DNA of 64,000 nt, from NCBI RefSeq assembly GCF_008974285.1, contig NZ_BKZV01000002.1, positions 248,001 through 312,000 on the forward strand, in the 5' to 3' direction. The translations under genes were made by a program, and so were the position numbers. Below the pieces are notes generated by a model. The model did no database searches. It had not been told where the DNA came from and was given only the letters and a program-made list of their open reading frames with translations. Source of the DNA: Thermogemmatispora aurantia (GTDB lineage Bacteria; Chloroflexota; Ktedonobacteria; Ktedonobacterales; Ktedonobacteraceae). Below, piece after piece: positions 12,574 through 52,080 of the stretch. The stretch's first letter is position 1. Each line of letters starts with the position of its first letter.

Positions 12574-12647
12574 TCGGGTGTGGCCAAGCGGTAAGGCAGC
12601 GGACTTTGGATCCGCGATCCCAGGTTCGAATCCTGGCACCCGAACCA
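12574..12647 (+). tRNA. tRNA-Gln (TTG anticodon), CCA encoded
   Basis: The acceptor TCGGGTG pairs with CACCCGA, followed by discriminator A and an encoded CCA. The anticodon loop CTTTGGA gives anticodon TTG for CAA codons. The T arm is CCAGG-TTCGAAT-CCTGG. The encoded CCA contrasts with the split tRNA at 51338-52080, which lacks it. A hairpin (CTGCTCTC...GAGAGCAG) follows directly. Confidence 0.96.
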
Positions 12648-33033: not shown

Positions 33034-33120
33034 AAGCCCTGGTCCGCGAAGGCAGATCCTGTAAGAGAGAACGAGCGGAACAGACCGGTTTTCTCCCCGC
33101 CCTGTCGCTCGGCGCAATTG

Positions 33121-33230
33121 GGTCCTGCGCGGCAGATGTCTGTGAACCCCGCCAGGTCCGTGAGGAAGCAACGGTAAATGGACCTCTCTGGGCGTCGCAG
33201 GGTTGCCTGATTGCGCTGAGCGGCAGGGCC
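33121..33230 (+). ncRNA. ffs: Small signal recognition particle RNA (4.5S-like)
   Basis: The closing stem GGTCCTG (33121-33127) pairs with CAGGGCC (33224-33230). The core holds the conserved apical hairpin with CCAGGTCCGTGAGGAAGCAA: GTGA (GNRA) tetraloop and the AGGAAGCA SRP-binding internal loop. Flanking GAACCCCGC and GCAGGGTTGCC pair. It lies upstream of dnaX, as scr does in Bacillus. It binds Ffh for membrane-protein targeting. No Alu domain was recognised, so it is the small type; the exact processed ends are estimates. Confidence 0.9.
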
Positions 33231-48252: not shown

Positions 48253-49098
48253 CTAGGCATAGCGCTGAATGTATTCGTCGATGCGGAACTCGCGAGGCTC
48301 AACGACCTCACGGGTCACGCGCTCCATTGTTGGCCGCTCCTCGCGGTAAAAGAGGCCGATATACTGCTTCTCGCTGTCGAGAGCATACTCCAGGGCCTTG
48401 AGCCGGCTGCTCGGGTCATGATCCTCTGGCAGCGGCGTTACCGCGGCATCCCAGGCATCGAAGGTATTGTAGAAGGTTGGGCAGGGACTGAGCACATGCA
48501 CAAAGGAGAAGCCCCGATGCAGAGTAGCCTGCTCGATCAGGGCCGCCAGCTCTTTGGGGCGAGCGGAGTAACCGCGGGCCACAAAGCTCACGTTCAGCGA
48601 GAGAGCGGTCGCGACCGGATTGAATTGCGAGGCTAGCAGGCCATAGGGCGATGACTTCGTCTTGTGGCCATGCGGCGAGGTAGGCGAGGTCTGTCCCTTG
48701 GTCAGGCCATAGGTCTCGTTATCCATTACGATGGCCGTAATATCGATATTGCGCAGAGCGGCGTGCACCAGGTGGCCGACGCCGATGCTGAAGAAGTCGC
48801 CATCCCCCCCCACGGCGATCACCGTCAGGTCAGGGCGGGCCATCTTCAGGCCCTGGGCGACCGGGAGAGCGCGCCCATGCACGCTATGGAAGCCGAAGGT
48901 GCGAATAAAGTGGGGGAAGCGGCTGGAGCAGCCAATACCCGAGACAACCACCGTCTGATCGACTGGCAGCTTGAGGGCGGCCATGCTGCGCAGCGTCGCG
49001 TTGAGCACGCCAAAATCGCCGCAACCCGGACACCAGGTCGGCTTGACCTCGCTCTTGTAGTCTTTGAGCGTGAGCGTTGGAGTGGTTGACTGAACCAC
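48253..49098 (-). CDS. korB: 2-oxoacid:ferredoxin oxidoreductase, beta subunit
   Basis: 281 residues. The [4Fe-4S]/TPP-binding motifs are CPGCGDFG and GGDGDFFSIG. Likely acts on 2-oxoglutarate or a related oxoacid with the alpha subunit upstream, passing electrons to ferredoxin. GTG at 49098 lies two bases after the korA stop with GGAGG ten bases upstream; a TTG three codons earlier is the alternative. The exact oxoacid is inferred. Confidence 0.92.
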   Translation of the reverse strand: MVQSTTPTLTLKDYKSEVKPTWCPGCGDFGVLNATLRSMAALKLPVDQTVVVSGIGCSSRFPHFIRTFGFHSVHGRALPVAQGLKMARPDLTVIAVGGDGDFFSIGVGHLVHAALRNIDITAIVMDNETYGLTKGQTSPTSPHGHKTKSSPYGLLASQFNPVATALSLNVSFVARGYSARPKELAALIEQATLHRGFSFVHVLSPCPTFYNTFDAWDAAVTPLPEDHDPSSRLKALEYALDSEKQYIGLFYREERPTMERVTREVVEPREFRIDEYIQRYA

Positions 49099-49100
49099 GG

Positions 49101-50888
49101 CTAACAAACCTCCTCAATGGCCCGCAGGATCTCCCCCGCGGTGAAGGGAATGCCCCCGAATTTATTGACACGAATCGGCTGCAGACCATACCTGGCCCCG
49201 AGCAGGTTGGCCAGCTGACCCGAGTAATTGCACTCGGGAACGATGATCGTCTTGACGGAGCTGATGAAATTGCGAAGAGCACGATCGGGCAGCGGCGAGA
49301 GAATGCGCAGGTGCAGGGAGGCTACCTTGTAGCCCTTGGCGCGTGCGCGATCAACCGCCTCTTGAATGGCTCCCTCTGTCGACCCCCAGCCGATCAGTCC
49401 GATCTCGGCGTCGCTGTCCCCGTACGGCTCCGGCTGTGGCAGCTCCTGGGCCGCCGTCTCCAGCTTGCGAAAGCGCTTCTGCATCATGGCCGTGTGGTCT
49501 TCCGGCTCGTAGTCTGGATGGCCATGCTCGTTGTGCTCCAGGCCGGTGGCAGAGTAAGGAAGGGCACCAGGTCCGGGGATAGTCATGGGAGAAATGCCGC
49601 TGGCTGTATAGGCGTAGCGCGCGAAGCTGGCCGCCAGAGCCGTCGCCGCCTCGTGCTTGCTCCCGTTGCCGCTGGCCCCATTGGCGCCGTTGGCGCCATT
49701 GCTGCCCACCTTGCCATACTCAAGGCGCCCCTCGATGGTGAAGGGCTGAAAGACGCTGCGATCGACGCTCTCAACGCGAGCCGTCAGCGACTGGTCGGTG
49801 AGGAAGATGACTGGCATCTGGTAGCGGTCAGCCATGTTGAAGGCCAAACCCATCAGGCTGTAGCAGTCGGCGACATTGGCCGGCGCCACGATCAGACGCG
49901 GCGTATCGCCGTGGCCACCGTAGAGGGCAAAGCTGAGGTCAGCCTGCTCCATCTTGGTGGGCATGCCCGTGCTTGGACCAGCACGCTGGGCATCGACAAT
50001 GACCGCCGGTAGCTCGGCCATCGAGGCCAGCCCGATCAGCTCGGTCATCAGGGAGAAGCCCGGGCCGGAGGTCGCCGTCATGGCCCGCACACCGCCGAAG
50101 GAGGCTCCCAAAACCGCCGCCAGGGCGGCCATCTCATCTTCCGCCTGCAAGAAGGTCCCCCCTACCTGCGGCAGCTCCTTAGCCATCGCCTCCATGATAT
50201 CACTGGCCGGCGTAATCGGATAGCCCGCGAAGAAGCCACAGCCTGCCGCCAGGGCGCCCGCTACAACCGCCTGGTTGCCATTGAGCACCACGCGATCGGC
50301 CTTTTCTACAGGACCAAGCTGGTAGGGATCTCGCTTTTCGATCTTCTCACGTACATAGCGATAGGCGATGTCTAGCGCCAGGCGGTTCTTCTCCATCAAG
50401 ACGGGATTGGCCTTGCGGGATTTGGAGAGGCGGGACTCGACTACCTGCAGCAGGGCCTCCAGAGGTGGCCCGAAGAGGCCAGCTATGGCCCCCAGCATGA
50501 CCATGTTCTTGGTCTGAAAAAGCTGCACTTCCTTGCGCGCTAGCTCGTTGAAGGGCACGGCATAGGTGATGAAGTCGTCGCTCTCGGGCGTGAAATCACC
50601 AGGATCGTAGACCAGGACCCCCCCCCGGCGCAGGTCGCGAATATTGCGGTCGTAAGCCTCTTTGTTGAGACAGATCAGGACGTCCGCATAGTCTCCCATC
50701 GATTTCACAGGGCGATCGCTGATGCGCACCTGGAACATACAGGGACCGCCCAGGATCTCCGCCGGGAAGGTGCGGAAGGTAAAGACATGATACCCCCAGC
50801 GCGCGGAGGCGAGCGCCAGGATGTCACCACCCGAGATGGTCCCTTCGCCCGACTCGCCACCAATCCGAATCGTCACTTCATTCTCCAT
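49101..50888 (-). CDS. korA: 2-oxoacid:ferredoxin oxidoreductase, fused gamma-alpha subunit
   Basis: 595 residues. The N-terminal ~190 residues are the gamma domain (RIGGESGEGTISGG, PAEILGGPCMFQ). The rest is the pyrimidine-binding alpha domain (GNQAVVAGALAAGCGFFAGY, ATSGPGFSLMTE). A glycine/asparagine/alanine repeat linker (NGANGANGASGNGS) interrupts the alpha part near residue 400. ATG with AGGGGG upstream. Coupled to korB. Confidence 0.93.
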   Translation of the reverse strand: MENEVTIRIGGESGEGTISGGDILALASARWGYHVFTFRTFPAEILGGPCMFQVRISDRPVKSMGDYADVLICLNKEAYDRNIRDLRRGGVLVYDPGDFTPESDDFITYAVPFNELARKEVQLFQTKNMVMLGAIAGLFGPPLEALLQVVESRLSKSRKANPVLMEKNRLALDIAYRYVREKIEKRDPYQLGPVEKADRVVLNGNQAVVAGALAAGCGFFAGYPITPASDIMEAMAKELPQVGGTFLQAEDEMAALAAVLGASFGGVRAMTATSGPGFSLMTELIGLASMAELPAVIVDAQRAGPSTGMPTKMEQADLSFALYGGHGDTPRLIVAPANVADCYSLMGLAFNMADRYQMPVIFLTDQSLTARVESVDRSVFQPFTIEGRLEYGKVGSNGANGANGASGNGSKHEAATALAASFARYAYTASGISPMTIPGPGALPYSATGLEHNEHGHPDYEPEDHTAMMQKRFRKLETAAQELPQPEPYGDSDAEIGLIGWGSTEGAIQEAVDRARAKGYKVASLHLRILSPLPDRALRNFISSVKTIIVPECNYSGQLANLLGARYGLQPIRVNKFGGIPFTAGEILRAIEEVC

Positions 50889-51212: not shown

Positions 51213-51317
51213 CAATGTGGACCGCACGATGTATCGATCTATTGGCATGCTGAACCAAATGTCGCGGGACTTCGTTGACTCTTCTGGCCTCTCCCTCTTC
51301 CCAGCGCATCGCGAGTG

Positions 51318-51326
51318 TGTTACAAT
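51318..51326 (+). promoter_or_regulatory. Extended -10 promoter of the interrupted tRNA gene
   Basis: TG-T-TACAAT, with predicted start about five bases before the tRNA 5' end. Confidence 0.6.
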
Positions 51327-51629
51327 AGTGGTCGCAAGGGCCCATAGCTCAGCGGTTAGAGCAGCCGGCTCATAAGTGCGCCGCTGTGCTCTACCTGTCT
51401 CTGCTGCGCAGTGCAGCACCACTGGGACCGTTGTGGTTAAAGCCTGGTCTGACCTGATCCCGAAAGGGTTAGGGGACAGTAGCATGACCAGAAAAGTGCG
51501 GCTCGGGGGAAACTGCTTACCCCGCTCCGTGCAGCGAGGCCGTATATGGTGAGGAGGAACTTCCGAACCCGAGATGTGCCCGCTCAACCACCCGTGCGAT
51601 GGCAGGATTGCGCACGTTGCCCGATTTGA

Positions 51630-51650
51630 CGACCGTGGTTATGAGGGTCG
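51630..51650 (+). other. EBS1 hairpin of the group II intron
   Basis: Stem CGACC (51630-51634)/GGTCG (51646-51650) presents an 11-nt loop holding TTATGAG (51639-51645). This is the exact complement of the seven bases before the 5' splice site (CTCATAA, 51369-51375), the IBS1. The intron thus recognises the tRNA anticodon loop itself. Confidence 0.9.
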
Positions 51651-51908
51651 CCAATGGTCCCATCGGGCTGGCGGCTGGTAGCCCGGCACATCCTAAGGGC
51701 ACCTACGTACGGACCGAGGCAGGTAGGGAACTGCGGGATCACCTTCCAGGATACGGGTCGCCTCTCCGGCACTAATTCGGCCACTGGCCTCGCCCGTGTC
51801 CTCTGGTGACGGAGTGCCCATAGTACTCAAACGATCGGGGTAATGCCCGATACACGGGGAAGGGGCACAGGGCGCTGCTTCCAGCCCTCTGGCTCGACAG
51901 CGCCTGGA

Positions 51909-51942
51909 GAGCCGTGTGCGTCGAAAGGCGCACGCACGGTTC
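51909..51942 (+). other. Group II intron domain V
   Basis: 34 nt: lower stem GAGCCGT/ACGGTTC (7 bp with the AGC catalytic triad and G-U), two-nt bulge GC, upper stem GTGCGTC/GGCGCAC (7 bp), GAAA tetraloop. Lengths 7-7-4-7-2-7 are the canonical ones. Confidence 0.95.
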
Positions 51943-52080
51943 GGGAAGAGATGACCTCGCTCAGCACCTGCGCCTTCCGGCAATCAGTGCTTGCCCGCCT
52001 GATCGCTTCCAGGCCAGGCATAGGCTGGGCAGTCGTCGGCTTCACCCGGTTGGTCCCTGGTTCGAATCCAGGTGGGCCCA

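What the first reader, a model, noticed from the sequence alone, without database searches (positions are those of the whole stretch)
51338..52080. A bacterial tRNA gene (CAU anticodon, Ile2-like) split by an ORF-less group II intron
Seen: exon joining gives a perfect 73-nt cloverleaf; the 670-nt insert starts GTGCG and ends AC; it contains a canonical 34-nt domain V; and a hairpin loop carries TTATGAG, the exact 7-nt complement of the anticodon loop CTCATAA preceding the 5' splice site. Known: group II introns in tRNA genes are common in plastids, while bacterial ones sit mostly in intergenic or mobile DNA. Inferred: if this is the only tRNA-Ile2 gene, AUA decoding depends on splicing, so the intron is essential and domesticated. 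The anticodon loop serves both as splice-site guide and as decoding element.
Basis: partly seen in the sequence, partly recalled or inferred. Interest (0 to 1): 0.95.

Follow-up and report, generated by a model that had tools for sequence, protein, structure and literature searches.

The report
Ribozyme introns splitting bacterial tRNA genes
In this bacterium the only copies found of three transfer RNA genes, including the only one for tryptophan, are each split in the anticodon arm by a group II intron whose guide sequence is complementary to that tRNA's own anticodon loop, so making these tRNAs, and hence proteins, would depend on a likely self-splicing RNA cutting itself out.

Summary
Confirmed and extended. 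Window 51338-52080 is a tRNA-Ile2(CAU) gene split by a 670-nt group II intron between nucleotides 38 and 39. The host is a Thermogemmatispora species (Ktedonobacteria), inferred from same-genus contigs. Its three domain V hits all lie in split tRNA genes (Ile2-CAU, Lys-CUU, Trp-CCA), each the only copy found. Six of six Thermogemmatispora genomes share all three, with no reverse transcriptase (RT) found. The guide EBS1 matches the anticodon loop and changes with it: 24 of 24 anticodon bases pair over eight anticodons, and of 40320 permutations only the true assignment scores as well. Thermogemmatispora Ile2 and Lys introns lack the branch-point A, so hydrolytic splicing is predicted. Nine long relatives, eight with an RT seen, split tRNA-Arg, -Val, -Leu or -Ile2 genes at the same site in Chloroflexota and Pseudomonadota; five of the eight whose far end was seen hold an intact same-anticodon tRNA gene inside. 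Their RT lineage also has members outside tRNA genes. Splicing itself is untested. Ten library searches listed no such report.

The parts
51298..51326 (+). promoter-like site (TTCCCA, 17 nt, TACAAT, with TG before the second hexamer), ending 11 nt before the tRNA
   Evidence: 1 found, 0.3 expected in shuffles; a consensus match only
51338..51375 (+). 5' exon of tRNA-Ile2(CAU), nucleotides 1-38
51369..51375 (+). anticodon loop CTCATAA (nucleotides 32-38), predicted IBS1
51376..52045 (+). ORF-less group II intron, 670 nt, GTGCG...AC
   Evidence: longest + strand stop-to-stop frame 95 aa
51639..51645 (+). EBS1 TTATGAG, complement of the anticodon loop
51909..51942 (+). domain V, 34 nt
51943..52045 (+). 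domain VI region and intron 3' end; G, not A, at -7 (52039)
52046..52080 (+). 3' exon of tRNA-Ile2(CAU), nucleotides 39-73 and discriminator A

Best explanation
This is a tRNA-Ile2(CAU) gene, the only copy found, split by a group II intron that lacks a maturase gene, likely splices itself out, and is predicted to use the tRNA's own anticodon loop as its 5' exon guide. Shown: the gene structure; the same architecture in the only tRNA-Trp and tRNA-Lys(CUU) genes found; its presence in six of six Thermogemmatispora genomes; no RT found in them; co-variation of EBS1 with the anticodon. Inferred: the transcript folds into the ribozyme; EBS1 pairs with nucleotides 32-38 at the end of the 5' exon; because the branch A is missing, water rather than a 2'-OH starts the first step; exon ligation closes the anticodon arm into its 7-nt loop, which takes IBS1 away from EBS1 and makes the reaction hard to reverse; TilS then modifies C34. 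Inferred history: these are relics of mobile, RT-bearing introns that insert after nucleotide 38 and reach other tRNAs by changing the EBS1 bases opposite the anticodon; in Thermogemmatispora the enzyme has been lost and the host now depends on the RNA.
For: Three RF00029 hits in the genome, all in split tRNA genes (introns 670, 642, 609 nt), all after nt 38. Inventory: 46 intact plus 3 split genes; Trp, Lys-CUU and Ile2 only as split. Trp only as halves in six of six Thermogemmatispora genomes, one of them a single contig; no intact Ile2 among the matches of the 12 genomes with a split one. RVT_1: 0 matches in six of six. Ile2 and Lys exons identical in all six genomes while introns are 83-97% identical; Trp exons identical in four of five extracted. 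EBS1: 30 of 33 introns pair all seven loop bases at aligned columns, 1 pairs six, 2 misalign and pair seven and six when searched. Eight anticodons: 24 of 24 anticodon bases paired; only the true assignment among 40320 permutations reaches the score; with every guide moved to another tRNA, mean 12.1, highest 19. Promoter-like site. TilS.
Against: No RNA data: no spliced tRNA was seen. The branch A is replaced by G here and no EBS2 pairing was found for this intron, so it departs from the textbook ribozyme and may need an unknown host factor. RVT_1 could miss a very divergent maturase. The genome is 94.7% complete in 17 contigs, and one search scored 150 of 251 first-look candidates for domain V. 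ATA codons are rare, so the Ile2 gene taken alone could be less than essential; Lys-CUU could be covered by the intact Lys-UUU.
Confidence: 0.87

Rival explanations
1. The introns are spliced, but not alone and not by hydrolysis: a host RNA-binding protein or chaperone is needed, and the first step branches from another nucleotide (the G at -7, or the A at -8 in Trp).
For: The branch A is gone in this lineage and EBS2 was not found, changes that usually cost activity; Trp keeps an A at -8 (five of five). Organellar ORF-less introns use host splicing factors (PMC4424553 passages).
Against: C.te.I1, also without a protein gene in its genome, self-splices robustly in vitro (PMC4424553 passages). 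No candidate factor was sought here.
Confidence: 0.3
2. The split genes are dead and intact copies or other tRNAs serve the cell; the intron is ordinary debris.
For: 5% of the genome may be missing; ATA is rare.
Against: Ile2 and Lys exons identical in six of six genomes; Trp only as halves in six of six, including a single-contig genome; the cloverleaf is complete; guide and loop still match in each case. A genome without any tRNA-Trp is not expected.
Confidence: 0.04
3. Splicing is a regulatory gate, for example temperature- or magnesium-dependent, that sets the supply of these three tRNAs.
For: The introns have been kept in three tRNA genes across the genus, with conserved place.
Against: No regulatory element was found or sought; maintenance by simple dependence explains the same facts.
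Confidence: 0.1

Closest known systems
Group II introns in plastid tRNA genes (for example trnK with matK)
   Same: Group II ribozyme in an essential tRNA gene, often without its own protein. [quoted passage not shown] PMC8393795 passages say group II introns are frequent in plastid tRNA genes.
   Different: Here a bacterium, no RT found in the genome, one site (38/39) shared by different tRNAs, and EBS1 spelling the anticodon loop. That the plastid trnV intron lacks a branch A and splices hydrolytically is recalled, from no call.
C.te.I1 of Clostridium tetani, and fungal rRNA introns with altered 5' splice sites
   Same: PMC4424553 passages: C.te.I1 is given as the sole known bacterial ORF-less intron without an IEP-related gene in its genome, and splices 8 nt upstream of GUGYG; the fungal introns splice 1-33 nt upstream and lost the EBS2 and branch motifs. 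Here the branch A is lost, EBS2 was not found, and six of nine ORF-less introns extracted from other genera have altered or extra nucleotides before the GUGYG-like start.
   Different: They are not described there as tRNA introns. Here tRNA genes without another copy are interrupted, by three related introns in one genome.
Group I introns in bacterial tRNA genes
   Same: Self-splicing ribozymes in the anticodon arm of bacterial tRNA genes; PMC4033280 passages place most at 37/38.
   Different: Different ribozyme class and chemistry; the site here is 38/39. That review says bacterial tRNA introns are group I introns. [quoted passage not shown]
Mobile group II introns of Ktedonobacteria and other bacteria
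   Same: Same ribozyme family; their proteins carry RVT_1, a maturase domain and an HNH domain.
   Different: Most of those examined are not in tRNA genes. PMC4424553 says most bacterial introns lie outside housekeeping genes, though some lineages, in cyanobacteria especially, reside in them.

Membership tests
Group II intron | Domain V catalytic hairpin | tested here: met
   RF00029 51.6 bits, gathering 40
Group II intron | 5' GUGYG and 3' AY boundaries | tested here: met
   GTGCG...AC at 51376-52045
Group II intron | EBS1-IBS1 pairing with the 5' exon | tested here: met
   7 of 7 pairs here; co-variation over eight anticodons
Group II intron | Domain VI with bulged branch-point A | tested here: not met
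   G at -7 in six of six Ile2 and six of six Lys introns of the genus; A at -7 in 8 of 10 introns from other genera. Introns filed as group II with this loss are known (PMC4424553 passages), so it stays filed here.
Group II intron | EBS2-IBS2 pairing | tested here: inconclusive
   possible pairing to GAGCAG in several relatives; 3 of 6 pairs in this intron
Group II intron | Excision and exon ligation by RNA catalysis | not testable with these tools
   needs RNA
Mobile group II intron (retroelement form) | Intron-encoded reverse transcriptase/maturase | tested here: not met
   no + strand frame over 95 aa in the intron; no RVT_1 in the genome. Not filed as a mobile intron, only as an ORF-less one.
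tRNA-Ile2(CAU) | Cloverleaf with CAU, closest to tRNA-Ile | tested here: met
tRNA-Ile2(CAU) | TilS encoded, for lysidine at C34 | tested here: met
   TIGR02432 184.9 bits, cut-off 93.6
tRNA-Ile2(CAU) | Lysidine present and isoleucine charged | not testable with these tools
   needs the mature tRNA

The most novel reading that the evidence does not exclude
Members of one lineage of group II retroelements use the tRNA anticodon loop as their genomic address: they insert after nucleotide 38, retarget from one tRNA to another by respelling the EBS1 bases opposite the anticodon, and often carry an intact tRNA gene with the same anticodon as a built-in replacement for the gene they break. In Thermogemmatispora the element has lost both enzyme and replacement tRNA, and three tRNAs without another copy now depend on branchless, maturase-free RNA splicing.
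Probability: 0.6. Interest if true: 0.94.

Novelty: new variant of a known kind. Interest (0 to 1): 0.9.

Why it matters
Bacterial group II introns are described as mostly mobile elements outside housekeeping genes, and ORF-less ones as rare and nearly always accompanied by a related protein gene (PMC4424553, passages). Here three introns without any RT found in the genome sit in tRNA genes that have no other copy found, one being the only tRNA-Trp, in six of six genomes of a genus. If they splice as predicted, this is an organelle-like dependence on ribozymes in a bacterium, and two of the species are named strains (T. tikiterensis T81, T. carboxidivorans PM5), so it can be tested. It bears on how retroelements become host dependencies, on whether hydrolytic splicing can support an essential gene, and on whether carrying a replacement tRNA is a tolerance device of a mobile intron. 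In practice, ARAGORN run without introns misses the gene.

Tried and rejected
A tRNA-dedicated RT clade: a first tree of 26 RTs put all 6 tRNA-inserted ones in one clade at 100/100. That was a sampling effect. A wider search found relatives of 60-64% identity for which no tRNA exon was recognised: L329, L343, L330, L344, L355, L331, L356 (for some of them the 5' junction is not certain). In a tree with five of these added, and ten distant RTs left out, 8 tRNA-inserted RTs of 30 rows fall in one 15-row lineage (100/100) together with 7 rows not in a tRNA gene or unresolved; the label needs 4 changes, as low in 4 of 500 shuffles. A middle tree of 35 rows, with P. silesiensis not yet labelled, also needed 4.

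EBS2: a pairing of GAGCAG with TTGCTT appears in several relatives but not in the Thermogemmatispora Ile2 and Lys introns; left inconclusive.

With 10 viral ones, 93 of 128 loci look like intact tRNAs whose 3' anticodon stem reads GTGYG, false positives; of the other 35 I followed only some. One more split Ile2 gene (Marinobacter, L284) was first miscounted as intact there and recognised. Spread outside Chloroflexota is thus a lower bound. In the phylum scan of 400 genomes the loci matched outside Ktedonobacteria (L131-L139) hold no tRNA by ARAGORN; that pattern misses introns with altered 5' ends.

Left out of counts: Microvirga splendida L192 (5' half at a contig end) and M. lotononidis L321 (a CAU tRNA near an RT frame, split gene not found).

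MatK link: Pfam MatK_N above cut-off in one RT (42.1 against 31.4), below it in two, absent in four others; no MatK sequence was compared.

G009 'Thr-CGT' pattern hit: no intron found; dropped. L241 likewise.

Ribozyme profile: the ORF-less profile scores highest on three Ktedonobacteria tRNA-site RT introns (239, 214, 206 bits summed; 239 counts a duplicated 3' end), then 177 on a non-tRNA one. Consistent with descent, no proof.

Papers: ten searches. I saw no group II intron in a bacterial tRNA gene in their listings; the library lacks most subscription journals. Passages only were read from PMC3236041, PMC4424553, PMC4390854, PMC8393795, PMC3073962, PMC8919778 and PMC4033280.

Full report
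What is in the window. The tRNA 5' half (51338-51375) ends exactly after anticodon-loop nucleotide 38; a 670-nt insert (51376-52045) follows; the 3' half (52046-52080) begins at nucleotide 39. The joined 73 nt form a complete cloverleaf with anticodon CAU; the ten E. coli matches listed are all annotated tRNA-Ile, the best 83.6% over the full length. The insert begins GTGCG, ends AC, and its last 139 nt match Rfam Intron_gpII at 51.6 bits (gathering 40). Its longest + strand stop-to-stop frame is 95 aa. A promoter-like site ends 11 nt upstream.

Not alone. The genome (G000, 5.6 Mb, 17 contigs, 94.7% complete) gives three Intron_gpII hits (150 of 251 first-look candidates scored; again three). 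With introns allowed, ARAGORN places all three in tRNA genes split after nucleotide 38: Ile2-CAU (670 nt), Lys-CUU (642 nt), Trp-CCA (609 nt). The inventory is 46 intact plus 3 split genes: three further CAU genes (by sequence two initiators and one elongator Met, a reading from recalled features) and an intact Lys-UUU, but no other Trp, Ile2 or Lys-CUU. The joined Trp exons find only halves in six of six same-genus genomes, while full-length copies are found in many other relatives. The joined Ile2 exons find only halves in 12 genomes (those six, plus G007, G011, G013, G015, G020, G023); the best other matches there are 82-84% over at most 68 nt, or 76% full length, taken for other tRNAs and not followed up. 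G016 has split Arg-CCU and Trp genes and G013 a split Lys-UUU besides its Ile2.

Who the host is. The class is Ktedonobacteria: G026 shares the 3,837,106-bp contig reported for K. racemifer. That the genus is thermophilic is recalled.

No protein partner found. RVT_1 finds nothing in six of six Thermogemmatispora genomes, including the single-contig G004; it matches in 19 of the 31 genomes searched (own). The review PMC4424553 (passages) calls ORF-less bacterial introns rare and nearly always accompanied by related introns with a protein, with C. tetani C.te.I1 as the sole known exception.

The guide spells the anticodon. In the 26 ORF-less introns extracted and 7 further introns, EBS1 lies at one aligned place. 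All seven loop bases pair in 30 of 33; one (Burkholderia) pairs six; two misalign but pair seven (G016 Trp) and six (G016 Arg) when searched. For G006 the loop of its intact tRNA-Val was used; with its own degenerate 5' half seven still pair, two as G-U. With two Leu cases there are eight anticodons: CAU, CUU, UUU, CCA, CCU, CAC, UAA, UAG. All 24 anticodon bases pair; of 40320 permutations of guides over loops only the true one reaches its score, and with every guide moved the mean is 12.1 and the highest 19. The Lys-CUU guide pairs seven of seven with the Arg-CCU and Lys-UUU loops too, which suggests how an intron could step between tRNAs through G-U pairs (inference).

Selection. Across the six genomes the Ile2 and Lys exons are identical while their introns are 83-97% identical at aligned positions, with length changes; Trp exons are identical in four of the five extracted. 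The three introns of this genome are pairwise 60-69% identical, so they are old. This is what purifying selection on a functional product would give.

Likely chemistry. Of 10 introns from other genera, 8 have A at -7; G015 and G016 Trp do not. In Thermogemmatispora it is G in six of six Ile2 and six of six Lys introns; Trp (five examined) has A at -8 and G at -7. G015 lacks the A and has four extra A before GTGCG. Six of the nine ORF-less introns extracted from other genera have altered or extra nucleotides before the GUGYG-like start. The review reports splicing upstream of GUGYG with loss of EBS2 and branch motifs in fungal rRNA introns, and analogous deviations in C.te.I1. I therefore predict hydrolytic first-step splicing. 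Against a simple link, four introns with altered 5' starts keep the A (G007, G013 Ile2, G013 Lys, G020). Untested.

Mobile relatives. The same 38/39 site is occupied by long introns in nine cases: Dictyobacter vulcani (G022, named through P0001; Arg-CCU, 2639 nt, RT 620 aa), G009 and G006 (Val-CAC), Pseudomonas fragi, Marinobacter maroccanus and Psychrobacter sp. FME6 (Ile2), Burkholderia sp. Bp8963 (Ile2; its contig ends before any RT or 3' exon), and plasmids of Pseudomonas sp. FeN3W (Leu-UAA) and P. silesiensis (Leu-UAG). An RT frame was seen in eight. Of the eight whose far end was seen, five hold an intact tRNA gene of the same anticodon inside (D. vulcani, G009, P. fragi, FeN3W, P. silesiensis), two hold none (Marinobacter, Psychrobacter), and in G006 the split gene is degenerate and an intact one lies directly downstream. 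Burkholderia has an intact CAU tRNA after its 5' junction too. Except in Burkholderia, the carried tRNA is not a close copy of the interrupted one as far as I compared by eye. No tRNA was reported inside the ORF-less introns. That the carried tRNA lets the host survive the insertion is my inference.

Limits on that story. The RT lineage is not dedicated to tRNA genes: for seven close relatives in K. racemifer, G012 and G021 no tRNA exon was recognised, and a tree of 30 RTs needs four changes of the tRNA label. A Cupriavidus member has a perfect EBS1 match to a non-tRNA exon that can form a hairpin. Descent of the ORF-less introns from such elements is supported by ribozyme similarity only.

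Verdict. These are ORF-less group II introns, a known kind, in a new setting: tRNA genes without another copy in a bacterium, anticodon loop as guide target, no maturase found, branch A lost. RNA evidence is missing and decisive.

Noticed in passing
L148 c2265-2338; L256 c5479-5554; L320 2812-2896; L322 4904-4987; L333 4112-4184; also L286 3433-3509: Intact tRNA genes with the same anticodon as the interrupted gene lie inside long tRNA-inserted group II introns (five of the eight whose far end was seen; L286 ends too early to tell).
   Followed up: partly
L333 (G009): The outer split tRNA-Val has stem CTTCG/CGAAG where the inner intact copy has CTTGC/GCAAG, a paired change, and the element carries two intron 3' ends.
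   Followed up: partly
L319, around 2471 and 4935: Cupriavidus necator plasmid: a related RT intron sits in a non-tRNA hairpin (GTTGGGATGCTTCA|CTTAGTCCCAAC) with a perfect EBS1 match; perhaps hairpin loops in general are targets.
   Followed up: no
L148 ORF 320-2182: The D. vulcani intron RT matches Pfam MatK_N above its cut-off, and many of the 120 relatives listed carry that domain. A link to the plastid trnK maturase MatK could be tested.
   Followed up: no
L183, L204, L213, L275, L280: tRNA-Arg(CCT)-like 5' halves in Firmicutes/Clostridia bins followed by GTGYG with no T arm recognised nearby; nature unknown.
   Followed up: no
L233: A bin labelled Acidobacteria (13_1_20CM_3_53_8) holds a split Ile2 gene with an ORF-less intron like those of Ktedonobacteria; the label may be wrong.
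   Followed up: no
window 33116-33215 and 12574-12647: Small SRP RNA and an intact tRNA-Gln(TTG).
   Followed up: no
window 48253-50888: Two adjacent genes with 2-oxoacid:ferredoxin oxidoreductase domains on the - strand, beside the split tRNA gene.
   Followed up: no
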